Assembly (NCBI RefSeq): GCF_002571225.1
Contig: NZ_NVEC01000048.1
Span: 12,618 to 76,617, forward strand
DNA length: 64,000 nucleotides
Direction of reading: 5' to 3'
From: Bacillus sp. AFS059628
Lineage (GTDB): Bacteria; Bacillota; Bacilli; Bacillales; Bacillaceae_G
Numbering within the stretch: the first letter of the stretch is position 1; each line of letters opens with the position of its first letter. The notes beneath the pieces are model-generated. The model worked only from the letters and a program-made list of their open reading frames with translations, ran no database searches and was not told where the DNA came from. Positions 13,681-50,936 of the stretch are shown here, in pieces. A program made the translations under genes and the position numbers.

Positions 13681-15527
13681 GAAAAGGGATTGTACTAAAA
13701 TTATTTACCCTCACAACAGCATTATGCATGTTAATTTTAGCGACGATATTTATTGGACAAACGATATTTTTCAAACAATATTATGCGAATCGAAAAGTAG
13801 AAGATATTAAAGTGAACTTAAATTCCTTTGAGAAGGGCTATTTGAATTATGTAGGAAATGCAGAAGAAATTAAGCGACTGGAGCAAGACTTTTTAAGAGA
13901 AAATAATACGTGGATTACGACATTAGATCAGAATGGGAATTTAAAACATGCGGATGATTTTTATTTTGAGGTAACGATAGATCGTAGGCAACAAAAGAGC
14001 TTTGGACAACAAATATTCAAAATTCCTTTATACAATCTCATCAATATAGAGGAGATTGATAATAAATCATCAAATGCATTTTTAGGACAAGAAATTTATT
14101 TTTCTGGCGTGAAAAAAGATGATAGTTATATTCCATTCTCTTTCACGTTAGGCAAGCAAAATTTAAGTGGATCTAATAAACCGTTAGAAAAAGCGTTTCA
14201 GGAGAAAATGAAATTAAATGAGGAGAAAAAGAGAGCAGCCGAGGAACAACTTGCTAAGGAAAAGAAACCAGCTGTTCAGAAAGAATTTGCTCAGGAATTA
14301 GATGCTTACATAGGTGGGCGTGTTACGAAAGTTCAGCTTCCTGATGTAACAGGTCCTATAAATCCAATTTATAAAAATAGCATCTTCTTAGATAACATAA
14401 AAGAATTTCAAACTAATTTATTATTAAAAGAGAGCAAGCACATACAATATGCAATACAAACAATGGACTATGAAAAAAATGATATTAAATATAAATTATT
14501 AATCAAGCCAATAAAAGAAAAAGATGGATCAGTAACTTATATATATGCGATGGCTTCTTTACAGCCTGTAGATGAAGCTGTACAAATGGTGCAAGATTAC
14601 TACATTTACATCATTGCGTTTGTAGTCGTTCTCATTTTTCTAGCTTCGTTTTATTACTCTAAACAAATTGCAAAACCGTTATTAAAAATAAATGATACAA
14701 CGAAGAAAATAGCGCACTTAGATTTCACAGAACAAATACCGATTACTTCAAAAGATGAAATTGGTGATTTATCGAAAAATATTAATGTATTATCTAATAA
14801 GCTCCATTCGCATATTGGACAGCTAGAACAAGACATTGAAAAAGAAAGAAAGTTAGAAAATACGAGGAAAGAATTCATTTCTGGTGTTTCGCATGAATTA
14901 AAAACGCCACTGAGTATTATGAAAAGCTGTATTTCTATTTTAAAAGATGGAGTAGCTGAGCATAAAAAAGAATACTATTTTCAAGCAATGGAACGAGAAG
15001 TAGATAAAATGGATACGTTAATTTTGGATATGCTTGAGTTAGCTAAATTTGAGTCAGGTACATATAAAATGAAAAAGGGAGCATTTTATATTGATGCTGT
15101 AATTGAAGATATATGTGAACATCTTTCTGTGGAAATAGAGAAAAAAGAACTTCATGTGCATAAAAATATATGTTCATTTGAAGTAGTTGCAAATCAAAGT
15201 CGGATTGAACAAGTCATCGTGAACTTCATTACGAATGCGATACGTTACACACCAAATAAAGAAGATATTATTATTTCTACAATAGATGAGAAGGATCGTA
15301 TAAAAGTGTGTATTGAAAATAAAGGTACTCACATTGAAGAAGAGCAATTAGATAAAATTTGGGATCGTTTTTATCGCGTGGATGCAGCTCGCAAGCGTTC
15401 GCAAGGTGGGACGGGGCTTGGGCTAGCTATTTCTAAAAATATTTTAGAATTACACGAAGCTGAATATGGAGTAAAGAATACAGAAGACGGTGTATTATTT
15501 TACTTTTACTTATCGAAAAAAGCGTAG
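13677..15527 (+). CDS. Membrane sensor histidine kinase with large extracellular domain
   Basis: A 616-residue kinase. Helix at about 7-28, extracellular sensing region of nearly 280 residues (about 30-305, including a Lys/Glu-rich stretch near 180-200), second helix at about 308-326, HAMP domain, HisKA box with phospho-acceptor His406 (GVSHELKTPL), and a HATPase domain with N, G1 and G2 boxes ending in GGTGLGLAIS. The long extracellular domain differs from BceS-type intramembrane kinases. The start overlaps the regulator's stop by four bases. Confidence 0.92.
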   Translation: MRKGIVLKLFTLTTALCMLILATIFIGQTIFFKQYYANRKVEDIKVNLNSFEKGYLNYVGNAEEIKRLEQDFLRENNTWITTLDQNGNLKHADDFYFEVTIDRRQQKSFGQQIFKIPLYNLINIEEIDNKSSNAFLGQEIYFSGVKKDDSYIPFSFTLGKQNLSGSNKPLEKAFQEKMKLNEEKKRAAEEQLAKEKKPAVQKEFAQELDAYIGGRVTKVQLPDVTGPINPIYKNSIFLDNIKEFQTNLLLKESKHIQYAIQTMDYEKNDIKYKLLIKPIKEKDGSVTYIYAMASLQPVDEAVQMVQDYYIYIIAFVVVLIFLASFYYSKQIAKPLLKINDTTKKIAHLDFTEQIPITSKDEIGDLSKNINVLSNKLHSHIGQLEQDIEKERKLENTRKEFISGVSHELKTPLSIMKSCISILKDGVAEHKKEYYFQAMEREVDKMDTLILDMLELAKFESGTYKMKKGAFYIDAVIEDICEHLSVEIEKKELHVHKNICSFEVVANQSRIEQVIVNFITNAIRYTPNKEDIIISTIDEKDRIKVCIENKGTHIEEEQLDKIWDRFYRVDAARKRSQGGTGLGLAISKNILELHEAEYGVKNTEDGVLFYFYLSKKA

Positions 15528-38286: not shown

Positions 38287-39294
38287 CTATTTCTTAATAA
38301 CGCTTTCGGCAATTTTTGTATTGACGAGCGCTTCATGTGGAACTTCTTTTTGTAATTCGCCAGCTCCTCTCATTATCGTTTGGAGCTGTTTCCATTCTTC
38401 CGCATCTAATAGCGGATTTGTTGCATAAGAGTGTTGTTTTTTATACCGTTCAATTACTTTTATTGTAATGTCCTTTGACGTGTCTTTAAATAACGGAGAA
38501 ACGGCATCAGCAATCTCTTCTGGACTATGAGTATCAACCCATTGTTGCGCTTTATAGAGAGCACGTGTGAATTTTTCAGCAGCAGCTTTATCTTTCTTTA
38601 AGAAACTTTCTTTTGCCATGAACGTTGTATACGGAACAGTACCAGATTCATTTCCGAATGAAGCGACAATATATCCTTTACCTTCTTTTTCGAATATACT
38701 TGCAGTCGGTTCAAAGAGCTGTACAAATTCCCCTGTACCAGATGCGTAGGCATTTGCAATGTTAGCAAATTCGATGTTTTGAATTAAGTTTGTGTCTTTG
38801 TGAGGATCAATGCCATTTTTCTTTAAAACGTATTCTCCAACCATTTGTGGCATACCGCCTTTACGCTGTCCTAAAAACGTAACACCCTTTATGTCATTCC
38901 AATTAAAAGAGTCTAATTTTTTACGCGAAACTAAAAATGTTCCATCTGTTTGTGTAAGTTGTGCGAAGTTAATGATAGGATCTTTCGCGCCTTGTTGATG
39001 AACATAAATGGACGTTTCAGAACCGACGAGAGCGATATCAATCCCGCCAGATAATAGGGCAGTCATCGTTTTATCTCCGCCAGCTGTTGTTTGGAGGTCA
39101 ACATTTAATCCTTCATCTTTAAAAAATCCTTTCTCAATCCCAACATATAACGGGGCATAGAAGAGAGAGTGGGTAACTTCGCCGACTCGAACATTTTGAG
39201 TTTGTTCTTTTGTACCTTCTTTTTTACTACTGCAAGCAGTAAATGTGAAAACTGCTAGTAACATGATACAAAAAACAGCTATTAATTTTTTCAC
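38287..39294 (-). CDS. ytlA: ABC transporter substrate-binding lipoprotein YtlA
   Basis: About 335 residues: signal peptide with lipobox FTACS, then an NMT1/SsuA-like periplasmic-binding fold (VGEVTHSLFYAPLYVGIEKGFFKDEGL). The family takes aliphatic sulfonates, taurine, nitrate or thiamine pyrimidines; the ligand is not evident and no THI or S-box leader is visible. GTG 39294 follows AGGAGGTG, so the long upstream reading is discarded. Confidence 0.87.
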   Translation of the reverse strand: MKKLIAVFCIMLLAVFTFTACSSKKEGTKEQTQNVRVGEVTHSLFYAPLYVGIEKGFFKDEGLNVDLQTTAGGDKTMTALLSGGIDIALVGSETSIYVHQQGAKDPIINFAQLTQTDGTFLVSRKKLDSFNWNDIKGVTFLGQRKGGMPQMVGEYVLKKNGIDPHKDTNLIQNIEFANIANAYASGTGEFVQLFEPTASIFEKEGKGYIVASFGNESGTVPYTTFMAKESFLKKDKAAAEKFTRALYKAQQWVDTHSPEEIADAVSPLFKDTSKDITIKVIERYKKQHSYATNPLLDAEEWKQLQTIMRGAGELQKEVPHEALVNTKIAESVIKK

Positions 39295-39414
39295 TATATA
39301 ACACCTCCTAGAAGTCACTCTACAAGCATGATATGTAGGTAAGTGCCCATATGTGAGTGTAGATAGCAGGAATTTTTTTGGTGATAAAGAAGTACAAATA
39401 TAAGGGGTGATAAA

Positions 39415-39711
39415 ATGAAGTACGAATATGATGATAGCGTACATTTACATCTTGATTATTTCGGAACAGAATGCGATATGGAATCGATTGCTTATAAGCG
39501 GAAGAATGAAGACGTGTGGGATGTGTATTTTAATTTTGGAGCATATGGTCTTCAGAAAGATGAGATCGAGACAGGTAAATTTATGGATGAATATGCTGGC
39601 CATTACGTTTTTTCTGTACATGCTCGTGATCTTAGCTGGGAATTTGGAAGTGCCCAGTTTGAAGAGTGGGTTTTGAAAAATCGGATAGTAGAAAAAACGC
39701 TACAAAAATAG
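39415..39711 (+). CDS. Hypothetical 98-residue protein
   Basis: A soluble acidic protein rich in aromatic residues (YFNFGAYGLQKDEI). AAGGGGTGATAAA precedes the ATG. It is followed 10 bp later by a small membrane-protein gene and is probably co-transcribed with it. I do not recognise the family. Confidence 0.65.
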   Translation: MKYEYDDSVHLHLDYFGTECDMESIAYKRKNEDVWDVYFNFGAYGLQKDEIETGKFMDEYAGHYVFSVHARDLSWEFGSAQFEEWVLKNRIVEKTLQK

Positions 39712-39721
39712 GAGGAATTTT

Positions 39722-39952
39722 GTGATTGGATTTCTCATTTTATTATTTATTTTTGTGGCCGGATTTCTTATCATGCAAATGCTTATTTACCGATTTGCAA
39801 AGAAAAACATCCATAAATATACAAAAATAAAATGGTTTCATATGTGGCTACATATGAATATGAAAAAAAGCCCGAGATTAGATTTTTTTGATTTTGTAAT
39901 TATAGTACTCGTATGTATCGTTTGGAAAATATGGCTGCTTCCTTTTATATAA
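39722..39952 (+). CDS. Small membrane protein with two helices
   Basis: A 76-residue protein with an N-terminal and a C-terminal transmembrane helix separated by a basic loop rich in Lys, His and Trp. GTG start is preceded by AGGAGGAATTTT. Probably an operon with the preceding gene. Function unknown. Confidence 0.65.
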   Translation: MIGFLILLFIFVAGFLIMQMLIYRFAKKNIHKYTKIKWFHMWLHMNMKKSPRLDFFDFVIIVLVCIVWKIWLLPFI

Positions 39953-39987
39953 TACACCTACTAATGATTTTTTCTTTTATCATAAAA

Positions 39988-40028
39988 TAACGAAAAGAAC
40001 CTGTCTTGTGGCAGGGTCTTTTCGTTAT
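39988..40028 (+). terminator. Terminator after the small two-gene operon
   Basis: ATAACGAAAAGAACCTG pairs with CAGGGTCTTTTCGTTAT (one bulge). The right arm runs into the YwbE remnant. Confidence 0.75.
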
Positions 40029-40031
40029 AGT

Positions 40032-40178
40032 AATAGTTGTAAAAAACTTGCATTTATAAGTAAAACAGTGAGTGGTGTTGTGAAAGATATTTTGACAAAT
40101 ACAGAAACACATACATACGGAATTAAAGTGCGATTACAGAATGGACAAATTGGCCGTGTGCAAAGTGTGGGGGAATAA
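40032..40178 (+). pseudogene. Truncated YwbE-family gene remnant
   Basis: The frame ending at 40176-40178 reads VSGVVKDILTNTETH then YGIKVRLQNGQIGRVQS, the C-terminal half of the small YwbE family. The family's N-terminal part (roughly residues 1-25, before the G-V-V-K-D-I motif) is missing, replaced by unrelated sequence directly after the previous terminator. No start codon with a ribosome site is seen, so it is a 5'-deleted remnant. Confidence 0.7.
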
Positions 40179-40217
40179 GAAAGAGGTCGTCCAACGGTGG
40201 ACGACCTCTTTCTTATT
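40174..40217. terminator. Very strong 20-bp inverted repeat
   Basis: Perfect 20-bp arms (40174-40193 and 40198-40217) with an ACGG loop, rich in purines on one arm. It can end the ywbE-remnant transcript and the minus-strand glycosyltransferase gene, whose stop overlaps it. Confidence 0.85.
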
Positions 40218-41469
40218 ATGCTTGGTTCGTGCGGAAGAATGGAAGCTTCTGCACAATGTGAATTAATCCGTATGCAAGAATTAAGCACATAAGAGGATTA
40301 ATGAAAAATCCATAGCGATTAATTGCTAAGAATAAGTTTGAGAAGATAATGTAAATAATAGAACTTGCTACTAGCATCATAACGCGTTTATGTTTAAATG
40401 AATTTAGCATGAAGCAGAAGCTGCTCAAGAATGTACCGATGATAAACACTCTATGACATAGTTGCATAAAGTTGTGAATACGGTATTGGTCTACAGCAGG
40501 AGCTGTTTTGAATAATTCAATTGTTTTACCGACAGTGAACCAAGAGAACCAATAAGTGAAGTCCGTCTTAAAGCCGTTCTTGATTAATTCTTTTGCGTAT
40601 GCACCTTTGTCATCTAAGCCTTTAGCTCTCATTTCATTTACTATATTTTCATATCCAATTTTATTAAATGGATCTGCACCGGCAATTAGTGGATCTGCAC
40701 CTTGGGTTGAGAATAAAATAAATTGGTTGAGTGCTAAGTAGTTACGAACCACCCATGCGCCAATAATAAAGAAAGGTCCGATAAACCATAACAATCCGAT
40801 TCGAATGGAGTCTTTAAATCCATATGTAAATAACACGACAAGAACAGGAATGAGCATCATTGGAGCTGGATTTGGACGGAACATAAGTAAAATTGAAACG
40901 ACAATTCCAAACCATATATGGAATTTCACCTTATTGTATTTCCATGCGAGAACAAATACATATACACATAACGCTAATAAAAATATGGATGGAACTTCTG
41001 TTAGCAATGTACGGAAGTATGTGTAGTTACTTGGATAAATAGCATATAAAATACTTGCAACAATTCCATAAATGTTTTTTTCGAACAATTCTTTTCCTAT
41101 TAAGAATACTAATAGCACTGTACATAGATTCATGATCATGTTAATAACAGTTGCTACGTAATAGTAAGGAATTGATGTAATATCAGAAATAATCATAGCG
41201 CCAGCTAATAGTAATGGCTGACCTGGTGTGATATATGCATTTTTCCCTGGAACTTCACTAGGTTCCAAATACACATAACCAAATACACCATGTTTTAATA
41301 GTTGTTCAGCTGTTAACGAATAGTTAAAGGCATCATTTGCACCATATGTTACTTTGACTAACTCTCCATCTAATCCTGGCTGTTTTACTAAACAAAAAAC
41401 GTGCAACAGGAAAGAAAGCGCCAAAATTGCATATACCGCTTTAGGCAAACTCTTAAACTTAGTAAGCAA
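40216..41469 (-). CDS. GT39-like membrane glycosyltransferase
   Basis: About 417 residues with ten or more membrane helices. An early acidic motif (GANDAFNYSLTAEQLL) sits in the first extracellular loop, as in GT-C enzymes of the PMT/ArnT type that use polyprenyl-phosphate sugars. TTG 41469 is preceded by AAAGGAG with 10-base spacing; the longer reading starting at 41613 lacks one. Acceptor is unknown. It is divergent from the LtaS-like gene. Confidence 0.75.
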   Translation of the reverse strand: MLTKFKSLPKAVYAILALSFLLHVFCLVKQPGLDGELVKVTYGANDAFNYSLTAEQLLKHGVFGYVYLEPSEVPGKNAYITPGQPLLLAGAMIISDITSIPYYYVATVINMIMNLCTVLLVFLIGKELFEKNIYGIVASILYAIYPSNYTYFRTLLTEVPSIFLLALCVYVFVLAWKYNKVKFHIWFGIVVSILLMFRPNPAPMMLIPVLVVLFTYGFKDSIRIGLLWFIGPFFIIGAWVVRNYLALNQFILFSTQGADPLIAGADPFNKIGYENIVNEMRAKGLDDKGAYAKELIKNGFKTDFTYWFSWFTVGKTIELFKTAPAVDQYRIHNFMQLCHRVFIIGTFLSSFCFMLNSFKHKRVMMLVASSIIYIIFSNLFLAINRYGFFINPLMCLILAYGLIHIVQKLPFFRTNQA

Positions 41470-41757
41470 AAATGAGCAACTCCTTTTTATTAATTCTTTC
41501 GTATTTTTATGTGAAATCTTTAATAGTATTAAGGATTTCCAAAACATAGTTATTATATCATAAAGTGGAATGCTGAAATTAAGTTTTTCAAGAATGAATA
41601 ATTTGTATGACAAATATAACTGTTGATTATAGGAATATTAAGACAATACATTTACAATAGAAGCAATTATGCAGACGAAATATGTAATATATGTTATTTT
41701 AATAGAAATAGTTTTTTCGATGCGGGGGAAATTAAGACGTAGAAACGAGGGAATAAA

Positions 41758-43827
41758 TTGAAGTATGGTTCTACACTTTTTCATCTTCCAAAAAGAAATA
41801 TATTAATTTCTAGCATTATAAGTAGTATGGTGACTTTATTAGTAATAACTATGCTGTTTATGATTTTAAAGGTTTTTAATTTAGACATGATGAAAGATCA
41901 TTTAAATCAAAAGCTTGTTTTAATTGTTATGATGATTTTCATATGGGGCATAACATTTTATATTTCACATTTTAATAAAAAAGAGATGTCTATACTTAGG
42001 GCATCCATACGAGTGCATTTTATATTATTTTTACTAGCTCATACAGTAGCGTTATTTTATATTGTAATGCAAGTTAATATGAGTTTCATAGAAGCAATGA
42101 ATTGGATTTACTTTTATAACATGCAGTTTATATTAAGTTTTGTAGTAATTTATGCAATATACATTCTTGTTTATAATTTAATAGGCAAGGTTTTTCTAAG
42201 TATGATTTTAACGAGCTGTACGTTAGTCATTTTAGGTATTGTGAATTATTTAAAGCTTATTTTCAGAGGCGATCCGCTATATCCTTCTGATTTCACACAA
42301 ATTATGCATATGCAATCTGTTATACCAATGGTGATGGACTATTTTAGCTGGAGTTATATTTTTGTCATTATCTTAAGTATTGTAGCTTGTATTGTAGCAG
42401 GTATATATATGAGAAGGTATATTCAAAATGTAAAGATTCATCTAGGAATAAGAGCCTTATTAGTAGTAGGATCTATTTTTGTTCTATATGCGTATGGTAA
42501 TTTTGCGAATACATTTATGAATAAAGTATTTCAAAAATCGGGTGTAGATTTTGTTTTGTGGAATCAAAATGAGAACTATGCTTCAAATGGTTTTGTACTT
42601 GGGTTTATTAGCAATTTAGATACAACAGTTATGGAAAAACCAAAAAATTATTCTAAAGAAAATATGCTTCAAATAGCAAACGATATAAAACAACAATATA
42701 GTGGAAATATAGGGAACCAAAAGAAAAAAGAGAAACCGAATATTATTTTTGTAATGAGTGAATCGTTTTGGGATCCGACGAAAGTAACAAAACTTTCTTT
42801 TAGTGAAGATCCTGTACCAAATTTGCATCATTATATAGAAAATTTTCCTGGTGGACAAACTATTTCTCCTACATTTGGAGGTAATACGGCGAACGTCGAA
42901 TTTGAAGCGTTAACGAGTTATTCAATGAGTTTGTTAAAGCCAGGTTCTATACCATATCAGCAGGTCGTTATAAATAAAAAAGAAATTCCATCAATTCCTA
43001 CGGCGTTGAAAAAAGAAGGTTATTACACAAGTGCAATTCATTCATTTGGTCGCTCATTTTTCAAACGCGATGACGTATACAGAGTGTTAGGGTTTGATAA
43101 GTTTAATGCAGATGATACGATGGAAAATGTAGATATTGATGGAGATTATATTAGTGATTTAGCGATGAGTAAAGAGATAATTGCTGAGCTAGAGAAACAA
43201 AAACAACCTACATTTATTCATGCAGTTACGATGCAAAATCATTTTCCATTTACAGAAGGCCGATTTGGTGAAAACCTAATAGAAATTAGCGGTCTAGAAA
43301 ATGAAGAATCAAAGGGAGAATTAGAAACGTATACAGAAGGGTTAAGACGTTCAGATGAGGCTCTTCAATATTTAATAGAGCAACTAGATAATTTAGATAG
43401 ACCTACATTATTAGTATTCTTTGGAGATCATCTTCCATCATTAGGAACAAATAAATCTTTTTATAAAGAGAATGGGTATATAACGAATGAAAAAACACCG
43501 AGCGAACGTTTAGCGATGGCCCAAACGCCGCTATTAATGTACGCAAACTTTGATATGCCAAATGATAATTTAGGTGTAGTAAGTCCAATTTATTTTTCTA
43601 ATCTTATTTTTGATTATGCAGGATTAAATAAATCCTTATTTTATCAATTTTTATCGGGATTTTACAAGGAAATACCGGTGCTTAGAGATGAATTAAAAGT
43701 TGATAAAAATGGAGAAGTAATCAATGATTTAACAAAGAAACAAAAAGAAATGTTAGAGCAATATAAAATGCTTCAGTATGATTTACTCGTTGGAAATCAA
43801 TATAGCAAAGATATCCTCTTTAAGTAA
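41758..43827 (+). CDS. LtaS-family sulfatase-fold enzyme (lipoteichoic acid synthase-like)
   Basis: A 689-residue membrane enzyme. Five to six N-terminal helices (to about residue 250) precede an extracellular sulfatase-type domain with PNIIFVMSESFWD and the nucleophile Thr377 in GGNTANVEFE, and the metal site FFGDHLPSLG. LtaS-family proteins polymerise glycerol-phosphate from phosphatidylglycerol. This version has a longer N-terminal region than canonical LtaS, so it may transfer glycerol-phosphate to another glycan. TTG start follows CGAGGG. Confidence 0.87.
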   Translation: MKYGSTLFHLPKRNILISSIISSMVTLLVITMLFMILKVFNLDMMKDHLNQKLVLIVMMIFIWGITFYISHFNKKEMSILRASIRVHFILFLLAHTVALFYIVMQVNMSFIEAMNWIYFYNMQFILSFVVIYAIYILVYNLIGKVFLSMILTSCTLVILGIVNYLKLIFRGDPLYPSDFTQIMHMQSVIPMVMDYFSWSYIFVIILSIVACIVAGIYMRRYIQNVKIHLGIRALLVVGSIFVLYAYGNFANTFMNKVFQKSGVDFVLWNQNENYASNGFVLGFISNLDTTVMEKPKNYSKENMLQIANDIKQQYSGNIGNQKKKEKPNIIFVMSESFWDPTKVTKLSFSEDPVPNLHHYIENFPGGQTISPTFGGNTANVEFEALTSYSMSLLKPGSIPYQQVVINKKEIPSIPTALKKEGYYTSAIHSFGRSFFKRDDVYRVLGFDKFNADDTMENVDIDGDYISDLAMSKEIIAELEKQKQPTFIHAVTMQNHFPFTEGRFGENLIEISGLENEESKGELETYTEGLRRSDEALQYLIEQLDNLDRPTLLVFFGDHLPSLGTNKSFYKENGYITNEKTPSERLAMAQTPLLMYANFDMPNDNLGVVSPIYFSNLIFDYAGLNKSLFYQFLSGFYKEIPVLRDELKVDKNGEVINDLTKKQKEMLEQYKMLQYDLLVGNQYSKDILFK

Positions 43828-43834
43828 AAGAAAT

Positions 43835-43872
43835 AAAAAGAACTTGTATAACGATACAAGTTCTTTTTTTAT
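43835..43872 (+). terminator. Terminator after the LtaS-like gene
   Basis: AAAAAGAACTTGTAT and ATACAAGTTCTTTTT form a 15-bp perfect stem. Confidence 0.88.
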
Positions 43873-44031
43873 AGTATTTAACGGGGTAACCAGACAAGCT
43901 GGGTTTAGGGGGTATTACCTGTACATTTAGTATAAACGAAAATGTAATCGTTTTATTAATTGATTTGTGAGAAATATGTGAATTTTATTCTTTTCAAAAA
44001 GTGCGTTCATATCACACGATTTGGCGCAGCT

Positions 44032-44841
44032 TTATGAATGCAAAAACTTTATAAGTTCTTCATTTAATTCATCCGCTTGATCGATTGGAGAGCCGTGACC
44101 GCTATTTGTAAGAGGATATAACTGAGAATTTTTAATCCGTTTTTGCGTAAGTTCAGCGCTTTTGTATGGGATAAGTTGATCATGAATACCGTGGAATATT
44201 TTTGTTGGCACGTTAATTTTACTTAAATCTTTCGTTACGTCTTCATTTGCAGCTGCTTGCAATATTTTGATGAGAGCATAGGAAGCAGACTGCATACCGA
44301 GATAAGAAAACCATTCTAACGTAGCAGATCCTAAGTTTCTATTAAAAAATGACAAAGATACATCATTTAAAAATTTAGGCATATTGGCATACATTTGATT
44401 AATGAGAGTATCTGCTTGTTCTTTTGGGACACCGTAGGGAGATTCTTGATTTTTAACGAAAGAGGGGGAAACGGCATCGACTAATACAAGTTTAGAAATA
44501 CGATGACCATTATAGCGAGACATGTACCGAATAGAAAGAGCACCACCTACTGAGAAACCAACTAATGTAGCATTTTCGACTTGAAGTGCTTCTAAAACGA
44601 TGGCAATATCGTCTGCTAAACGATCGTATGTGTAACCGGTCCACGGTTTATCAGATTGCCCGTTCCCGCGTATATCCATAGCGATGCAGCGAAAACCATG
44701 CTGTGGTAACACATTGAGCTGATATTGGTACATTTGATGATTTAAAGGCCAGCCATGGACGAAGAAAACGGTTTTACTATCAGGTCCGGGATTAACGTCT
44801 TGCACAAAAATATGAACATCTTTCTCGACGGTAACAAACAT
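44032..44841 (-). CDS. Alpha/beta hydrolase
   Basis: About 269 residues with the fold's HGWPLN oxyanion motif, nucleophile elbow GFSVGG (Ser near residue 98), an acid in the loop FHGIHDQLIP and a C-terminal catalytic His in SGHGSP. The layout is like non-haem chloroperoxidase-type esterases. AGGGGGATC precedes ATG 44841. Substrate unknown. Confidence 0.87.
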   Translation of the reverse strand: MFVTVEKDVHIFVQDVNPGPDSKTVFFVHGWPLNHQMYQYQLNVLPQHGFRCIAMDIRGNGQSDKPWTGYTYDRLADDIAIVLEALQVENATLVGFSVGGALSIRYMSRYNGHRISKLVLVDAVSPSFVKNQESPYGVPKEQADTLINQMYANMPKFLNDVSLSFFNRNLGSATLEWFSYLGMQSASYALIKILQAAANEDVTKDLSKINVPTKIFHGIHDQLIPYKSAELTQKRIKNSQLYPLTNSGHGSPIDQADELNEELIKFLHS

Positions 44842-45082
44842 AAATGATCCCCCTATCCTATTCATATACTCTATCCCAAAAGCGTTGTTATGCTTTTTAT
44901 TTTTTTACACCCATAATATAAGTATTTTTGTTTATAGCTTTTATGCTTATATATAGTCTGAAGATAATGCACTTTATTGGGATGATTTTCCTCAAATGTT
45001 CGATTTATCTTTGTTTGTCTGTGAAAATCATTTATTATAATAAATGGTATTCTTCGAGATATTATTTTGAAGGGGTGTTGAA

Positions 45083-46336
45083 GTGAAAGGAAGTTTTCTA
45101 TCATATAAAGAAGAAGAAAGGAATGCAAAAATTTTTTTATGGGTGCTCTATGTCATTGTTGTTTCATACCAAATTTTCTACGCAACCGTACTAGAGAACG
45201 AATCGCTAACGGATAAGGGACATAGCATACTATGGCAAGTTATTTGTGGGACTGCAATACTCGGTGTGAATTTATATTTAATAAAAAAAGAGAAAGCGAA
45301 CCTTGTTAAATATACATGTGTATTTGCATACATAGGAATAGAAATCGTTAATATACTTTCGTATCTGCTTTATAATGAGGCGGCATTTGATGGAGTAAAT
45401 ATAATAGAAATTATTTTCATCTTCTTTGTACCTATATTTTTAAATAGAAAATATTTTGTGTTTGTACTTTCGACTATTGTAGGGAAATATGTTATTTATT
45501 TATTTGTATTAAAGGAAGTAAAAGGATTTATGTTCCTCATTATGTATACACTCGTATTAATAGCGGCATACATCATTTTAAATCGATTTATACAATACCT
45601 TTCAGCGGTAAAGGAAAGTATTAAGATCGCTAGTGAATCACAAAAATTAGCAGTAATCGGAAAAATGGCAGCGACAGTGGGACATGAAATTAAAAATCCA
45701 CTTGCTTCATTAAAAGGGTTTACGCAATTACAACGAGAGAAGCATGGAGAGGACCCTATTTACCAACAGATGATCTTTGAAATAGAAAATATGAATAATA
45801 TGATAAATGAGTTAATGGAGGTTGCTACATGTAAACCTTCTGTTTATAAGAAACATAATATAGGTGAAATTGCATTACAAGCAGTAACAATTGTTCGCGA
45901 AAAAATGAATGAATCTAGCGTCCAGTTTATTTCTAATGTGGAAGAAAAGACGATAGAAGTTGAATGTGATGAGCGGAAAATAAGAGGGGTCTTTCTATAT
46001 GTCATAAAAAACGCTCTGGAGGCAATGGAGCAAGGTGGCACATTAGAGTTACGGCTAGAAAATAAAGGACGAGATTATGTAATGCTAAGTGTAATTGATA
46101 ATGGTTACGGTATTAAGAAAGAAAATTCAGCTCGTGTTAAAGAGGCCTTTTATACAACGAAACAAGATAAAATTGGCCTGGGACTTACGGTAGCGGATCG
46201 AATTGTTAACGAACACCTTGGTAAGTTACATATTTCAAGTGAAAGAGATAAGGGAACGAGAATAGATATTATTCTTCCAAAAAAGTGTGGAAATAATGAA
46301 ATACAAGTGGGAGAAAAGCTAGGAGTTACCATATGA
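45083..46336 (+). CDS. Sporulation-type sensor histidine kinase
   Basis: A 417-residue kinase. Five to six N-terminal membrane helices (to about residue 180), HisKA box with His201 (GHEIKNPL), and HATPase with N-box VIKNALEAM, G1 DNGYGI and G2 IGLGLTV. The design resembles KinB-type kinases that feed the Spo0 phosphorelay; no response regulator is adjacent, which fits. From memory, B. anthracis has a sporulation kinase near this position (BA5029), but I cannot verify it. GTG start follows AAGGGGTG. The stop overlaps the next gene's start. Confidence 0.87.
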   Translation: MKGSFLSYKEEERNAKIFLWVLYVIVVSYQIFYATVLENESLTDKGHSILWQVICGTAILGVNLYLIKKEKANLVKYTCVFAYIGIEIVNILSYLLYNEAAFDGVNIIEIIFIFFVPIFLNRKYFVFVLSTIVGKYVIYLFVLKEVKGFMFLIMYTLVLIAAYIILNRFIQYLSAVKESIKIASESQKLAVIGKMAATVGHEIKNPLASLKGFTQLQREKHGEDPIYQQMIFEIENMNNMINELMEVATCKPSVYKKHNIGEIALQAVTIVREKMNESSVQFISNVEEKTIEVECDERKIRGVFLYVIKNALEAMEQGGTLELRLENKGRDYVMLSVIDNGYGIKKENSARVKEAFYTTKQDKIGLGLTVADRIVNEHLGKLHISSERDKGTRIDIILPKKCGNNEIQVGEKLGVTI

Positions 46337-47553
46337 ATAAAGACGATATATTTAAGAATGAAGAAATGAAGGCACTGAAAATATTTTTAAGTTTATTTTT
46401 CATTATATTTTTTGTATACGATCTTGCCTACGAATTTATTGTACCTTTAATAGGAGGAGAGCAAGAAGGAGTAGGACAACTTGAAGATGGTTTAGGTTTA
46501 TGGCTTTATTTTCTAATGGTGATTTTGTTTTGTATTGGAGTATACTTCATGAAATGGAAGAACCCATTTGCAGTGAAATATATTATTCTAATTGGATATA
46601 ACCTATTAGATTTTATCCATAATTTTATGATTTACTACGGTAGTGATGCTGAGTTTGATGGTGGGAATATAGTAGAAGGATTTTTTATTTTATTTGCCCC
46701 ACTCTTTGTGAACAAAAGGTATTTTTGGTTAGTTCCGAGCATACTTGTTGGGAAATATGCTCTTATAGGAATCATTATTCAATCGTCACTCGTTTTAATC
46801 CCGATGGCATTATATAGCGTATTTACTATTATATGTTGGATTATGTTTTTAAGGTTTCAATCTTACGTTCGTACGCTTGAGATGATGGATAAAGAAATAC
46901 AACAAACAGAAAAGCTAGCAACTGTTGGGAAAATGGCTACAGTTATTGGTTACAAAATTAGAAAACCTCTAGCTAATTTAGATAAATTTGTGAATAAGCA
47001 AGCGAATAAATACCCAGAGGATAAAATATATAGCGATATTATGAAACAAGAAGTAGAACGAATTCATATGATTGCTACAGAACTTAGTGGATTTGAGAAA
47101 TCTAAATCACCAGAATCAGAAATTCATAATATAGAAGAAATTATCGCTTATGTTATTCGAGTTATGGGAAAGCCTGCTTTAAATCAAGGCGTGCACATAC
47201 AAGGTATTTATAGTAAAGACATACCATCGATTCCATGCGATGAAAAACGATTAAAACAAGTATTCTTTAATTTAATTAAAAATGCGATTGAAGCAATGTC
47301 AGTTGGTGGAACGATTACGATTAAAGTGACTGTAGAAGATGCAATCATTATTCAAGTTAAGGATGAGGGTTGCGGCATTCCAAAAGACAAAATTCCGAAG
47401 CTAAATGAAGCCTTTTACACAACAAAAGAAACTGGAACAGGTTTAGGTTTAGTAGTTACAGAAAAAATTATTAAAGATCACAACGGTAAAATGAGTTTTG
47501 AAAGTGAAGTTGGGGTTGGAACGACGGTGAAGATTATATTGCCGATATCATGA
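46333..47553 (+). CDS. Paralogous sensor kinase lacking the phospho-accepting His
   Basis: A 406-residue paralogue of the preceding kinase with the same membrane domain and a complete HATPase (N-box NLIKNAIEAM, G1 DEGCGIP, F-box FYTTKE, G2 GTGLGL). In the H-box the usual GHEIKNPL is GYKIRKPL, so His is Tyr207 and the Glu and Asn are also lost. It should not autophosphorylate in the normal way. An ATGA overlap couples it to the intact kinase, with which it may heterodimerise. Confidence 0.85.
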   Translation: MNKDDIFKNEEMKALKIFLSLFFIIFFVYDLAYEFIVPLIGGEQEGVGQLEDGLGLWLYFLMVILFCIGVYFMKWKNPFAVKYIILIGYNLLDFIHNFMIYYGSDAEFDGGNIVEGFFILFAPLFVNKRYFWLVPSILVGKYALIGIIIQSSLVLIPMALYSVFTIICWIMFLRFQSYVRTLEMMDKEIQQTEKLATVGKMATVIGYKIRKPLANLDKFVNKQANKYPEDKIYSDIMKQEVERIHMIATELSGFEKSKSPESEIHNIEEIIAYVIRVMGKPALNQGVHIQGIYSKDIPSIPCDEKRLKQVFFNLIKNAIEAMSVGGTITIKVTVEDAIIIQVKDEGCGIPKDKIPKLNEAFYTTKETGTGLGLVVTEKIIKDHNGKMSFESEVGVGTTVKIILPIS

Positions 47554-47565
47554 AAAATTATTTTT

Positions 47566-47605
47566 AAAAAGGAGATCACTTATTTGGGAGTAATCTCCTT
47601 TTTTG
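47566..47605 (+). terminator. Terminator after the kinase pair
   Basis: AAAAAGGAGAT pairs with ATCTCCTTTTT around a 16-base loop. Confidence 0.8.
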
Positions 47606-47703
47606 TGGAATGAATTTTTTAAGTGTGAGTTTATAGATCAGTGATTAGAAAAATAGTGGTACAATATATGAATGATACGAGAAGAGAGGATGAAGATTAA
47701 CGT

Positions 47704-48027
47704 ATGTACGTTACTGTAACAGAAGCAGCATATAAAAAGATTATGGATACGATTCCAAATGAAGCGAAATATATAAAGTTATTTTACGATAATGAAGGCT
47801 GCGGTTGTGTAATGAGCGGAATCATTGATTTAGTAGCTGTAGCAGAAAAAGATGAGCGTGATGTGGATATCGAATCTAGTGCAATGAATTTTATTGCAGA
47901 TCGCACGAAGCTTGTATTTATGGATGATAAGTTAACAGTTGATTGGCATGAAGGTGGAGGAACTTTTCAGCTGAAGAGCCCCAGCCAATTTTATAATCCA
48001 AATATGAAGCTACATGTTCGAGTGTAA
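47704..48027 (+). CDS. HesB/YneR-like iron-sulfur-biosynthesis-family protein
   Basis: A 107-residue protein of the HesB-like (FeS_biosyn) fold. It has a single GCGC motif in place of the usual C-terminal pair, as in the YneR/YqkB subgroup. These are related to A-type carriers but lack their full Cys set, so a true cluster-carrier role is uncertain. It stands alone before a terminator. Confidence 0.78.
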   Translation: MYVTVTEAAYKKIMDTIPNEAKYIKLFYDNEGCGCVMSGIIDLVAVAEKDERDVDIESSAMNFIADRTKLVFMDDKLTVDWHEGGGTFQLKSPSQFYNPNMKLHVRV

Positions 48028-48033
48028 GTAAGG

Positions 48034-48073
48034 AAAGGTGGTTCCAAAATGTATGTTGGAACCACCTTTTTTT
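48034..48073 (+). terminator. Terminator after the HesB-like gene
   Basis: AAAGGTGGTTCCA and TGGAACCACCTTT form a perfect 13-bp stem, then a T run. Confidence 0.9.
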
Positions 48074-48082
48074 ATTGTATAA

Positions 48083-48116
48083 GCCGCTATATTTGAAAAA
48101 TCGCCGATATAATTAC
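48083..48116 (-). repeat. ATATATC-type dispersed repeat, copy C (inverted, single unit)
   Basis: Read on the minus strand, AATTATATCGGCGATTTTTC followed by AAATATAGCGG closely matches the start of copy B at 31621. Only one unit is present. Confidence 0.6.
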
Positions 48117-48226
48117 ATGTATCAAACAAAGAGAACCTCTCCAGATGAATACGAAGATTTTTTCACATAATGAAATGTACATATGATTGAATTTTCTGTA
48201 TAATTTTATTTGCGGAGGGGATACGC

Positions 48227-49132
48227 ATGAGAAGATGGGGAATTGAGTTATTAATTTTAGCAGTCGTTATTATTTGGGGGATTAATTTTACCATTGCGAA
48301 ATATGGACTGTTAGAATTTACAGCAATTGAGTTTACTGCACTTCGGATGATATCGGCGGCACCGCTTATGTTACTCCTTACATTTTTTATTGAAAAGTCG
48401 GTTTACATGGAGAGAAAAGATATACCTAGATTAATTATCGTTAGCGTTGTAGGTATTGTACTGTATCAAACGTTATTTATGGAAACTGTCAAATATACAT
48501 CCGCTACAAATGCCTCTTTACTCATTTCTATTTCACCTATTTTTACAACTGTATTTGCGATTTTCTTGAAACAAGAAAAGTTTTCTTCTCGAAAGCTCAT
48601 CGGTTCTATCATTGCTTTTGGTGGTGCAGTATTAGTTTTAGCAGCAGGGCATTCACTTGCTAGTTCTTTTTACGGGAATGGGATTGGACTCATTACATCA
48701 ATATGCTGGGGGCTTTATCCTGTTTTAGCAAGTCCATTAATTAAAAAATATTCAGCACTACGTGTTACCGCATGGTCAGCATTAGTTGGTGCAATACCGC
48801 TTTTATTGTTAAGTGGACCATATGTATTTATAATGCCATTTCACATTACACACGGAATGACACTATTCGCCTTACTATATTCTATCTTCTTTGTAACGGT
48901 ATTTGGTTTAGTGATGTGGTATGTTGGTGTTCAAAAAATTGGGGCGTCACATACGATGGTATACATGTATATAACGCCGCTTGTAGCTGTTTTATTTGCA
49001 GCTGTATGGGCAAATGAATATGTATCGTTTCAACAAATAATCGGTGGAATTATTATTTTCTTCGGTCTATGGTTTGTAAAATCGGAGAAAGTAAATGTAC
49101 CTTCTACTGCAGGGGAACCTATATCAAAATAG
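48227..49132 (+). CDS. EamA/DMT-family transporter
   Basis: A 301-residue protein with ten helices in two EamA repeats (about residues 5-135 and 150-285). WGINFTIAKYGL at the N terminus and the ISPIFTTVFAIF segment are typical. Drug/metabolite exporter of unknown substrate. GGAGGGGATACGC precedes the ATG. Followed by a bidirectional terminator. Confidence 0.88.
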   Translation: MRRWGIELLILAVVIIWGINFTIAKYGLLEFTAIEFTALRMISAAPLMLLLTFFIEKSVYMERKDIPRLIIVSVVGIVLYQTLFMETVKYTSATNASLLISISPIFTTVFAIFLKQEKFSSRKLIGSIIAFGGAVLVLAAGHSLASSFYGNGIGLITSICWGLYPVLASPLIKKYSALRVTAWSALVGAIPLLLLSGPYVFIMPFHITHGMTLFALLYSIFFVTVFGLVMWYVGVQKIGASHTMVYMYITPLVAVLFAAVWANEYVSFQQIIGGIIIFFGLWFVKSEKVNVPSTAGEPISK

Positions 49133-49168
49133 GAAAACAGATCACTTATGATCTGCTTTCCTATTTTT
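49131..49168. terminator. Bidirectional terminator
   Basis: AGGAAAACAGATCA (49131-49144) pairs with TGATCTGCTTTCCT (49149-49162) around a CTTA loop, then a T run. It lies between convergent genes. Confidence 0.85.
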
Positions 49169-49382
49169 TTATTTTTGGTAAGAAGACGAGAAATAAGATA
49201 GCAGTAATAAGTGGAATTAAGTTTAAAAATGGAATACGGAAGAGTGTGATAAGAATAATACCTGGAAGAAGAACACCGAGGACAGCGTAGAAAATACTAT
49301 GATTTTTCGTGTACCAATACAATGAAAGTCCAATAAGTGCAGGGATAATGAGGTGAATGAGAGCCATTAAAAAATATATCAT
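49161..49382 (-). CDS. Small membrane protein with two to three helices
   Basis: A 73-residue, highly hydrophobic protein with a basic PKIKK end. AAAGGGGGCG precedes the ATG. No family recognised. Confidence 0.65.
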   Translation of the reverse strand: MIYFLMALIHLIIPALIGLSLYWYTKNHSIFYAVLGVLLPGIILITLFRIPFLNLIPLITAILFLVFLPKIKK

Positions 49383-49660
49383 TAGACGCCCCCTTTATTT
49401 GTGTACTTATTACATCATATCCGTATGTTCATAGATTGATATCACTTTTTTCATAAATGGACGAAAAATGTTTGGAAAAACGTCACAAATTATGAAAATA
49501 TGATGTTTAAAATCTTGTATAATATTATTTTCTAAAAACATTCAAACAACATAAACATATTGTTTATGTTGTTTTTAATTTGGGTGAAATGGGTCTAAGG
49601 AATATGGATTTGAAGGAAAATTTTGTTGGATAGATCAGAACTAACGAAGAGAGGTACAGC
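49383..49660. other. Intergenic region with a perfect 14-bp inverted repeat
   Basis: TATAAT at 49518-49523 is followed 20 bp later by AAACAACATAAACA (49544-49557), TAT, and TGTTTATGTTGTTT (49561-49574), then TTAATTT. The repeat may be an AT-rich terminator giving a very short RNA, or an operator for the AtpI-like gene. Nothing else is apparent. Confidence 0.5.
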
Positions 49661-50044
49661 ATGATTAGTATGTCATTAAGGTCGTTTAAGATTCAATCGT
49701 ATTATATACTGGGTATTCTTTTGCTCGGCTGGATGGTAACGCCGTTTTCAGCACATTTTCTAGGTGCAGGAATTGGGCTTATCGTAAGTATGTATTGTGT
49801 TTGGCTTTTAGGGAGACGAATTGAGAAGCTTGGAGATAGTATCGTAAAGAAAACGAAAGCACCGACGCTCGGTATGTTTAACCGTTTTGCCGCTGCTATT
49901 TTAGGTGCTATTATTATGTACGAAATTGAGCACCATATGGTGATGTGGGCATTTGCAGTAGGGATTATGGGCGGTTATTTCTTAATTGTTGTTAATTTAG
50001 GATACTATAGCATGAAAGATGAGAAAGAATTAACGAAGAGTTAA
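49661..50044 (+). CDS. AtpI-like (ATP synthase subunit I family) membrane protein
   Basis: A 127-residue four-helix membrane protein (helices about 14-30, 33-50, 72-90 and 95-112). The GMFNRFAAAILGAIIM and FAVGIMGGYFLIVVN segments fit the ATP synthase I family. No other atp gene is nearby, so it is either an orphan paralogue or a related assembly or ion-uptake protein. GAGGTACAGC precedes the ATG. A microsatellite begins at its stop codon. Confidence 0.6.
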   Translation: MISMSLRSFKIQSYYILGILLLGWMVTPFSAHFLGAGIGLIVSMYCVWLLGRRIEKLGDSIVKKTKAPTLGMFNRFAAAILGAIIMYEIEHHMVMWAFAVGIMGGYFLIVVNLGYYSMKDEKELTKS

Positions 50045-50088
50045 AAAGATAAAAAGATAAAAAGATAAAAAGATAAAAAGATAAAAAG
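50043..50088 (+). repeat. 8-bp microsatellite (AAAAAGAT)x5.75
   Basis: Five perfect AAAAAGAT units (50043-50082) plus AAAAAG start at the stop codon of the AtpI-like gene. Slippage would change copy number without altering the protein, making this a natural VNTR marker. Its closeness to the 3' end could influence mRNA stability. Confidence 0.9.
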
Positions 50089-50099
50089 CCTCTTTTTAG

Positions 50100-50385
50100 A
50101 TGGAAGAGAGGATCCAGCGGAGGATAGAAGCGGTCAGGGCCTTTTTTAGCCCCATGCGGTGTGAAACCAGAGAGATGTAGCGAGTAGGGATATAATTTAT
50201 ATATTCGAAGCTGTAATTTGTCTGTGTGAAAATGGGTTAATCTGGAAGGGTGATCCAACGGGGGATAGAAGTGGTCAGGGCCTTTTTTAGCTCCATGCGA
50301 TGTGAAACCAGAGAGATGTAACGAGTAGGGATAAAGTTTATATATTCCAAGCCGTAATTTGTCTATGTGAAAATGGGTTTACTCT
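50100..50385 (+). repeat. Tandem duplication of an approximately 141-bp intergenic element
   Basis: Two copies (about 50100-50240 and 50241-50385), recognised by GATCCAGCGGAGGATAGAAG / GATCCAACGGGGGATAGAAG (offset 141), GGTCAGGGCCTTTTTTAG, GTGTGAAACCAGAGAGATGTA and similar ends. About 90 percent alike. No conserved reading frame; this looks like a tandem pair of a dispersed B. cereus group repeat, which cannot be confirmed from one window. Confidence 0.8.
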
Positions 50386-50410
50386 GGGGTAAGTGATGAT
50401 ATTACAAGAG

Positions 50411-50452
50411 GAAGCGTAACTTTGCATAAAATGCAGGTTTCCGCTTCCATTA
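50411..50452 (-). terminator. Hairpin downstream of the 65-residue membrane gene
   Basis: GGAAGCGTAAC and GTTTCCGCTTCC pair, with an inner TGCAT/ATGCA stem. It lacks a clear T run, so termination is uncertain. Confidence 0.5.
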
Positions 50453-50465
50453 AGTTAATATGAAA

Positions 50466-50663
50466 TTACGTATTAGTATGACTCTTAGGTTCTTTAAAAA
50501 AGTTGGATATAATACAAAAAGCTATTCCGGTAATTAGAATAATATATTTTATCGTTTCACTTGTATGCTCGAATAAATTAACGTTAAGCATCACAAGTCC
50601 CCAAAAAAGTTGGATTGCTCCGTAACTGAATAAAATTTTTCCTGTACGAGAAAAATTTTTCAT
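50466..50663 (-). CDS. Small two-helix membrane protein
   Basis: A 65-residue protein with two hydrophobic helices (about residues 13-30 and 38-57). AAAGGGTG is spaced for ATG 50663; the GTG nine bases upstream overlaps that site. No family recognised. Confidence 0.65.
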   Translation of the reverse strand: MKNFSRTGKILFSYGAIQLFWGLVMLNVNLFEHTSETIKYIILITGIAFCIISNFFKEPKSHTNT

Positions 50664-50782
50664 AGATCTCACCCTTTCCTGTATATGTAAATTGTATCAT
50701 GAAAAAATTAAAAATGAATGATTATAAAATGAATTTTCTGTAAATTCGAAAGGTAAGTCATAGAAGAAGAGATAAGATATAG

Positions 50783-50818
50783 AAAGAAGCTTACGTAAAA
50801 AACGTAAGCTTCTTTTTT
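50783..50818. terminator. Strong hairpin downstream of pckA
   Basis: AAAGAAGCTTACGT (50783-50796) pairs with ACGTAAGCTTCTTT (50802-50815), flanked by A and T runs. It is the likely pckA terminator on the minus strand, 120 bp after the stop. Confidence 0.8.
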
Positions 50819-50936
50819 ATGTAAGTGTGTATAAACCGTTAAGCCGCATTGGGTTTTGTCGGTGAGTACGCGAAACTTTACGGTTACACGCCACTTATTC
50901 ATATGAGTAAGGGGTATTCCAACAGAAAGTTTGTAC

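What the first reader, a model, noticed from the sequence alone, without database searches (positions are those of the whole stretch)
45083..47553. Tandem sensor kinases: one intact, one with Tyr in place of the phospho-acceptor His
The two overlapping paralogues share membrane and ATPase domains. The second reads GYKIRKPL where the first has GHEIKNPL, losing the His, Glu and Asn, while keeping all ATP-binding boxes. Translational coupling (ATGA) implies fixed stoichiometry. A pseudokinase that still binds ATP could form heterodimers and tune, or trans-phosphorylate, the partner in the sporulation phosphorelay.
Basis: partly seen in the sequence, partly recalled or inferred. Interest (0 to 1): 0.75.

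Follow-up and report, generated by a model that had tools for sequence, protein, structure and literature searches.

The report
Two half-broken sensor kinases, one working pair
Two neighbouring, overlapping Bacillus-type genes encode related sensor kinases that have each lost the half the other kept (one the phosphate-accepting histidine, the other key ATP-site residues), so they most likely work only as a mixed pair, perhaps feeding the sporulation pathway.

Summary
Two full-length MASE12 membrane kinases overlap by ATGA at 46333-46336. The second (P0002) reads GYKIRKPL, losing His, Glu and Asn, as reported. The first (P0001) is not intact: it keeps GHEIKNPL but has Tyr306 for the first N-box Asn and Lys363-Ile364 for Gly-Thr of the G2 box. 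Among 149 distinct MASE12 kinase relatives, His is present in 149, the N-box Asn in 149, and the G2 Gly in 148 (one is truncated). The losses are complementary: at columns at least 98% conserved, P0001 departs at 0 of 10 in DHp helix 1 and 5 of 17 in the catalytic domain; P0002 at 5 of 10 and 0 of 17. P0001 keeps a docking code close to that of Spo0F-directed kinases; P0002 has lost it. Best explanation: a natural split kinase, a heterodimer in which P0002's catalytic domain phosphorylates P0001's His, which feeds Spo0F. This mirrors the laboratory EnvZ G2-mutant plus H243A complementation. Pairing, phosphotransfer and target are inferred. Conservation among close orthologues could not be tested: none was found in the collections searched.

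The parts
45083..46336 (+). P0001: 417-aa MASE12-HisKA-HATPase_c kinase; the phospho-acceptor half, with a degenerate ATP site
45680..45703 (+). P0001 H box GHEIKNPL, with phospho-acceptor His201 and intact HExxN motif
   Evidence: coordinates checked
45704..45730 (+). P0001 helix-1 stretch with docking residues ASGFQL (His+7, +8, +11, +12, +14, +15), close to Spo0F-directed kinases
   Evidence: PMC6136694 passages
45998..46000 (+). P0001 Tyr306 in place of the first N-box Asn (149 of 149 relatives have Asn)
46169..46174 (+). P0001 Lys363-Ile364 in place of the G2-box Gly-Thr (Gly in 148 of 149 relatives, the other truncated)
46333..46336 (+). ATGA stop/start overlap of the two genes
46333..47553 (+). 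P0002: 406-aa MASE12-HATPase_c paralogue; the catalytic half, without phospho-acceptor
46948..46971 (+). P0002 degenerate H box GYKIRKPL (Tyr207, Lys208, Lys211), followed by Lys218, Asn221 and Lys222 at docking positions
47260..47298 (+). P0002 canonical N box VFFNLIKNAIEAM
47434..47451 (+). P0002 canonical G2 box GTGLGL
47570..47604 (+). terminator-like hairpin with T run after P0002, which may close a two-gene unit
   Evidence: one search reports a stem at 47586-47599 (4 terminator-like sites found against 1.8 expected in the region); the wider hairpin is read by eye

Best explanation
The two genes encode one sensor kinase split between two full-length paralogues. After duplication of a MASE12 membrane kinase, P0001 kept the phospho-acceptor helix (His201, HExxN, receiver-docking face) while its ATP site decayed. 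P0002 kept the ATP-binding catalytic domain while its phospho-acceptor helix decayed. They are made together from overlapping genes and pair through their DHp domains. P0002's catalytic domain phosphorylates P0001's His201 in trans, and P0001 passes the phosphate to a free-standing receiver, most likely Spo0F, or removes it when the pair is off. Shown here: architecture, overlap, complementary residue losses, complementary evolutionary rates, docking code. Inferred: heterodimer, trans-phosphorylation, Spo0F as target, effect on sporulation.
For: 1) Complementary losses: P0001 departs at 0 of 10 (helix 1) and 5 of 17 (CA) columns at least 98% conserved in 146 full-length relatives; P0002 at 5 of 10 and 0 of 17 (Fisher p=0.008). 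At 95% conservation: P0001 0 of 14 and 6 of 27, P0002 7 of 14 and 1 of 27. Left-out relatives depart at no more than 2 columns in helix 1 and 1 in CA. 2) Rates on a fixed tree: P0001/P0002 branch ratio is 0.49 in helix 1 but 3.16 in CA; P0002's CA branch (0.52) and P0001's helix-1 branch (0.60) are each within the range of other tips. 3) Matches to the relatives' majority residue: helix 1 versus CA discordance p=0.003 and 0.002 at two thresholds. 4) P0001 docking code ASGFQL is shared by 27 of 149 relatives; P0002 has ANKFNK, seen in none. 5) ATGA overlap and a downstream terminator-like hairpin. 6) Precedent: EnvZ G2-box mutant plus H243A subunits complement in vitro (PMC4734776 passages), and CheA3/CheA4 is a natural split kinase (PMC3591291 abstract and passages). 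7) Among 103 other kinases in the fetched loci, the N-box position is Asn in 99 (3 gaps, 1 Ala) and the G2 position Gly in 98 (4 Ser, 1 Ala); Tyr or Lys in none.
Against: P0001 still scores over the HATPase_c cut-off and keeps the second N-box Asn, G1, F and two G2 glycines, so it may retain ATP use and act alone. P0001 also departs outside its catalytic domain (2 of 9 MASE12, 1 of 1 linker, 3 of 6 helix-2 columns), so part of its change is general fast evolution; its sparing of helix 1 is on its own only marginal (p=0.054, 0.029 and 0.040 at three thresholds). Dividing DHp into helix 1 and helix 2 was done after seeing the data; with DHp whole the Fisher values are weaker (0.034, 0.066, 0.042). 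DivL keeps its ATP boxes yet binds ATP weakly (PMC4211667 passages), so P0002's good boxes do not prove activity. If these kinases phosphorylate in cis, as reported for ArcB (PMC4734776), complementary halves would not work. The tree does not resolve whether the two are sister copies (AU 0.555 versus 0.445). No close orthologues could be examined.
Confidence: 0.57

Rival explanations
1. DivL/RetS-like pseudokinase: P0002 is catalytically idle and tunes P0001, an active though divergent kinase, by pairing with it or by sensing a ligand or a phosphorylated receiver.
For: Tyr at the His position is exactly the DivL substitution, and DivL works without kinase activity (PMC4211667 passages). Pairing of kinase paralogues is known for ChrS/HrrS (PMC9491836 passages) and RetS/GacS (PMC12189002 passages). 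P0001's HATPase_c is still over cut-off.
Against: P0001 lacks the first N-box Asn and the first G2 Gly found in every relative that reaches them, and its CA branch is three times P0002's. P0002's CA keeps 17 of 17 columns conserved at 98%, which is unexpected if catalysis were not used. P0002's receiver-docking residues are lost, so it is unlikely to sense a phosphorylated receiver as DivL does.
Confidence: 0.2
2. Phosphatase or phosphate sink: P0001, with a poor ATP site but an intact HExxN motif and docking face, drains phosphate from Spo0F (a brake on sporulation or a membrane Spo0B-like carrier), and P0002 only stabilises or switches it.
For: P0001 keeps HExxN and a code close to the Spo0F type with a damaged ATP site. 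Spo0B may derive from a kinase that lost its ATP domain, and a membrane-bound Spo0B exists in Paenibacillus (PMC12826061 passages).
Against: It gives no reason for the good conservation of P0002's catalytic domain (0 of 17 departures).
Confidence: 0.12
3. Decay: one or both genes are on the way to becoming pseudogenes and the substitutions have no function.
For: Both carry losses at residues invariant in the family. They have the two longest tip branches in the tree, 1.88 and 1.06 against 0.84 for the next.
Against: Both frames are open and show coding composition. P0002's losses are concentrated in helix 1, and each protein's retained region evolves at an ordinary rate.
Confidence: 0.08
4. 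P0002 is phosphorylated on Tyr207 and is a tyrosine kinase of histidine-kinase descent.
For: Tyr lies exactly at the phospho-acceptor position with intact ATP boxes.
Against: DivL, with the same substitution, showed no autokinase activity (PMC4211667 passages). The neighbouring Glu and Asn and the docking residues are also lost.
Confidence: 0.03

Closest known systems
CheA3/CheA4 split histidine kinase (Rhodobacter sphaeroides)
   Same: ATP-binding and phospho-acceptor functions lie on two proteins, neither autophosphorylating alone (PMC3591291, passages)
   Different: There whole domains are missing; here both proteins are full length and have lost complementary active-site residues. Membrane MASE12 sensor kinases, not chemotaxis kinases.
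EnvZ G2-box mutant plus H243A complementation (laboratory)
   Same: One subunit with a defective G2 box and one lacking the His, phosphorylated in trans (PMC4734776, passages)
   Different: Engineered there; natural here, with additional complementary losses.
DivL pseudo-histidine kinase (Caulobacter)
   Same: Tyr at the phospho-acceptor position and retained N, G1, F, G2 boxes (PMC4211667, passages)
   Different: DivL still binds its receiver DivK; by recall its partner CckA is a complete kinase encoded elsewhere. P0002 has lost the docking residues and its partner is damaged too.
ChrS pseudokinase with HrrS; RetS with GacS
   Same: Paralogous kinases that pair, one impaired or inhibitory (PMC9491836, PMC12189002, passages)
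   Different: The ChrS pseudokinase arose in laboratory evolution by a frameshift; no complementary loss in the partner is described in the passages read.
KinA-KinE sporulation kinases (KinB, 3d36, among the closest solved structures)
   Same: P0001 docking code agrees at five of six positions; KinB is the best solved match to P0001 and second for P0002
   Different: Those act from single genes (established knowledge); here the functions appear divided.
Rv0600c/Rv0601c split kinase of Mycobacterium tuberculosis (recalled; one search listed two papers that name these genes, not read)
   Same: Catalytic and acceptor parts on adjacent genes, as recalled
   Different: Domain-level split, as recalled; not checked here.

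Membership tests
MASE12 sensor histidine kinases | N-terminal MASE12 membrane domain | tested here: met
   PF20971 in both proteins, 55.4 and 95.9 bits against a cut-off of 27
MASE12 sensor histidine kinases | HisKA phospho-acceptor domain with His | tested here: not met
   Met by P0001 (PF00512 35.4 bits, His201); not met by P0002 (no HisKA hit, Tyr207)
MASE12 sensor histidine kinases | complete ATP-binding boxes N, G1, F, G2 | tested here: not met
   Met by P0002; not met by P0001 (Tyr306, Lys363-Ile364)
Split (bipartite) histidine kinases | acceptor and catalytic functions divided between two proteins | tested here: inconclusive
   Residue losses and rates divide that way; activity not measured
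Split (bipartite) histidine kinases | neither protein phosphorylated alone, acceptor phosphorylated when mixed | not testable with these tools
   needs purified proteins
DivL pseudo-histidine kinases | Tyr at the His position with retained ATP boxes | tested here: met
   P0002 Tyr207 and boxes
DivL pseudo-histidine kinases | retained receiver-docking surface | tested here: not met
   P0002 ANKFNK; all 149 relatives keep G at the third and Q at the fifth position
Spo0F-directed sporulation kinases | docking residues as in KinA-KinE (T, A/V/S/G, G, F, Q, L/I) | tested here: inconclusive
   P0001 ASGFQL agrees at five of six positions; the first is Ala, not Thr. 80 of 93 other kinases with a readable H box also have the G-F-Q core, but that set was drawn by similarity to P0002 and is not a control of unrelated kinases
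Spo0F-directed sporulation kinases | orphan gene, no adjacent response regulator | tested here: met
   No response-regulator domain in the seven neighbouring genes scanned; small open frames were not scanned
Spo0F-directed sporulation kinases | phosphotransfer to Spo0F | not testable with these tools
   needs purified proteins

The most novel reading that the evidence does not exclude
A natural obligate heterodimeric histidine kinase that arose by reciprocal loss of active-site residues in two full-length paralogues, a naturally evolved counterpart of the EnvZ complementation experiment, used as an input to the sporulation phosphorelay. Such a device can fire only when both membrane sensors are present and paired, so it could act as an AND gate or give the switch-like behaviour modelled for split kinases.
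Probability: 0.45. Interest if true: 0.78.

Novelty: new variant of a known kind. Interest (0 to 1): 0.62.

Why it matters
Histidine kinases generally act as homodimers, and the natural split kinases I know of are split by whole domains. A pair of full-length paralogues locked together by complementary point losses would be a clean case of duplication followed by subfunctionalisation of an enzyme active site. It would also make testable why a sporulation input should need two sensors: modelling of split kinases predicts ultrasensitivity and bistability (PMC3591291). It warns that annotating P0001 as an intact kinase and P0002 as a dead one may misread both.

Tried and rejected
The best full-length match was 47% identical to P0002. 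A pckA control over 397 genomes gave at best 80% identity. So conservation of Tyr207 among close relatives stays open.

The species of the window is my inference from gene content and recall (Bacillus cereus group); no call names it. I recalled a paper on nine B. anthracis sporulation kinases (Brunsing et al. 2005) and a locus tag BA5029; a search for that tag found 0 papers, so nothing rests on it.

Considered and set aside: a single recent point mutation (several helix-1 changes); sequencing error (several separate codons in open frames with coding composition); and a shared origin with the tandem kinases of some relatives, since the pairs in L154, L155 and L159 keep His and ATP boxes in both members. 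No Spo0A box was found upstream with up to 1 mismatch. The tree left the placement of both proteins unresolved. A literature search for MASE12 listed two papers, neither on bacterial kinases by title or start of abstract, not read.

Full report
What is there. Two genes on the + strand, 45083-46336 (P0001, 417 aa, GTG start) and 46333-47553 (P0002, 406 aa), overlap by ATGA. Both carry the MASE12 membrane domain and a HATPase_c domain over Pfam's cut-offs; HisKA is found only in P0001. A terminator-like hairpin follows P0002. The seven neighbouring genes scanned are a mannosyltransferase-like protein, a sulfatase-type protein, an alpha/beta hydrolase, a Fe-S biosynthesis protein, an EamA transporter, an ATP-synthase-I-like protein and pckA; none is a response regulator, so the kinases look like orphans.

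P0002 reads GYKIRKPL with canonical N, G1, F and G2 boxes. P0001 reads GHEIKNPL but is not intact: the first Asn of the N box is Tyr306 and the Gly-Thr of the G2 box is Lys363-Ile364.

How unusual is this? I gathered MASE12 kinases, from the family search (142 places in 140 of 193 genomes, all read) and from the MASE12 search (matches in 53 of 397 genomes; only the loci it gave and those I picked were read). Frames matching both my MASE12 and catalytic-domain profiles numbered 172, of which 151 were distinct: the two of the window and 149 relatives. His is present in 149 of 149, Glu in 149, the H-box Asn in 149, the first N-box Asn in 149 and the G2 Gly in 148, the remaining one (L164) being truncated before that box. 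Among 103 distinct other kinases in the loci held when the profiles were first run, the N-box position is Asn in 99 (3 gaps, 1 Ala) and the G2 position Gly in 98 (4 Ser, 1 Ala).

The losses are complementary. For columns at least 98% conserved in the 146 relatives complete at both ends (3 of 149 dropped), P0001 departs at 2 of 9 in MASE12, 1 of 1 in the linker, 0 of 10 in DHp helix 1, 3 of 6 in helix 2 and 5 of 17 in the catalytic domain; P0002 departs at 0 of 9, 0 of 1, 5 of 10, 1 of 6 and 0 of 17 (Fisher for helix 1 against catalytic domain p=0.008). At 95% the helix-1 and catalytic counts are 0 of 14 and 6 of 27 for P0001 and 7 of 14 and 1 of 27 for P0002 (p=0.005); at 90%, 1 of 15 and 7 of 34, and 8 of 15 and 1 of 34 (p=0.003). 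Left out one at a time, 138 of 146 relatives depart nowhere in helix 1 and none at more than 2 columns; 134 depart nowhere in the catalytic domain and none at more than 1. An earlier set of 92 relatives gave the same picture. Two cautions: splitting DHp into helix 1 and helix 2 was done after seeing the data, and with DHp whole the p values are 0.034, 0.066 and 0.042; and P0001's sparing of helix 1, taken alone, is marginal (0.054, 0.029, 0.040), whereas P0002's concentration of losses in helix 1 is strong (3e-5 to 5e-4).

Rates. With branch lengths fitted per region on one fixed tree, the P0001/P0002 ratio is 1.85 in MASE12, 0.49 in helix 1, 1.15 in helix 2 and 3.16 in the catalytic domain. 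P0002's catalytic branch (0.52) and P0001's helix-1 branch (0.60) lie within the range of other tips (longest 0.81 and 0.86). In helix 2 both proteins are far faster than any other tip (3.74 and 3.26 against 1.66). P0001 is fast in MASE12 as well, so part of its change is general. The regions are short (helix 1: 43 columns) and the tree is not well resolved.

Target. Kinase specificity residues for KinA-KinE read TAGFQL, TVGFQL, TSGFQI, TGGFQL and TAGFQL (PMC6136694, passages). Placing the six positions at His+7, +8, +11, +12, +14 and +15 is my own reading of those codes. P0001 reads ASGFQL, a code found in 27 of 149 relatives; P0002 reads ANKFNK, found in none. P0001 agrees with the KinA-KinE range at five of six positions; its first residue is Ala instead of Thr. 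Of 103 other kinases, 93 had a readable H box and 80 of these share the G-F-Q core; that set was found by similarity to P0002 and is rich in kinases of this type, so it is no control of unrelated kinases. P0001 therefore looks like a phosphodonor of the Spo0F-directed type and P0002 does not. KinB (3d36) is the best solved match to P0001 and the second best to P0002.

Mechanism. The best-supported reading is a split kinase made of two full-length paralogues: P0002's catalytic domain phosphorylates His201 of P0001 in trans, and P0001 passes phosphate to Spo0F. This matches the laboratory experiment in which EnvZ G2-box and H243A subunits complement each other (PMC4734776, passages), and the logic of CheA3/CheA4 (PMC3591291, abstract and passages). 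It requires trans-phosphorylation; the same paper reports ArcB as working in cis. The main rival is DivL-like tuning. DivL has the same Tyr, keeps its ATP boxes, binds ATP weakly and has no autokinase activity (PMC4211667, passages), so good boxes alone do not prove that P0002 is active. DivL differs in still binding its receiver.

Origin. The tree does not settle whether P0001 and P0002 are sister copies: the sister arrangement and the free tree are both acceptable (AU 0.555 and 0.445), and the two have the longest tip branches (1.88 and 1.06; next 0.84). In the relatives in hand, the MASE12 kinase is usually followed by a MASE12 HD-GYP gene: of 93, 3 had too little downstream sequence; of the other 90, 59 had such a gene by a strict motif, 3 more did by eye (two with variant motifs, one cut short), 3 were followed by a second kinase and 25 by no MASE12 gene. 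Of the 397 genomes, the four with the best pckA match (78-80%) were read over 19,901 bases each: in 4 of 4, pckA adjoins the orthologue of window 38287-39444 and no frame there has its best match among the window genes at 40216-50044. The kinase pair thus lies in a segment absent from that place in these genomes.

Limits. No structure was obtained. Pairing, phosphotransfer, target and any effect on sporulation are inferences. I saw no description of such a reciprocally degenerate natural kinase pair in the listings; these cover open-licence papers only, and I read passages of seven papers, none whole (PMC3591291, PMC4211667, PMC4734776, PMC6136694, PMC9491836, PMC12189002, PMC12826061).

Noticed in passing
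window 39445-50936: In four of four genomes with the best pckA match, pckA adjoins the orthologue of 38287-39444; the genes between (mannosyltransferase-like, sulfatase-type, hydrolase, kinase pair, Fe-S, EamA and ATP-synthase-I-like) have no match there, so the segment may be lineage-specific.
   Followed up: partly
L001:5935-8575: In many relatives a MASE12 kinase is followed by a MASE12 HD-GYP protein (59 of 90 by strict motif; Pfam check of one), suggesting that one membrane sensor type feeds both a kinase and a c-di-GMP phosphodiesterase.
   Followed up: partly
L154:3557-6228; L155:3352-6039; L159:3135-5957: Other tandem MASE12 kinase pairs exist; in these both members keep the His and the ATP boxes.
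   Followed up: yes
L161:3895-5511: A 539-aa MASE12 kinase with about 120 extra residues between MASE12 and the kinase core, divergently placed from a second MASE12 gene.
   Followed up: no
window 13677-15527: A separate HAMP-HisKA-HATPase_c kinase of 616 aa.
   Followed up: no
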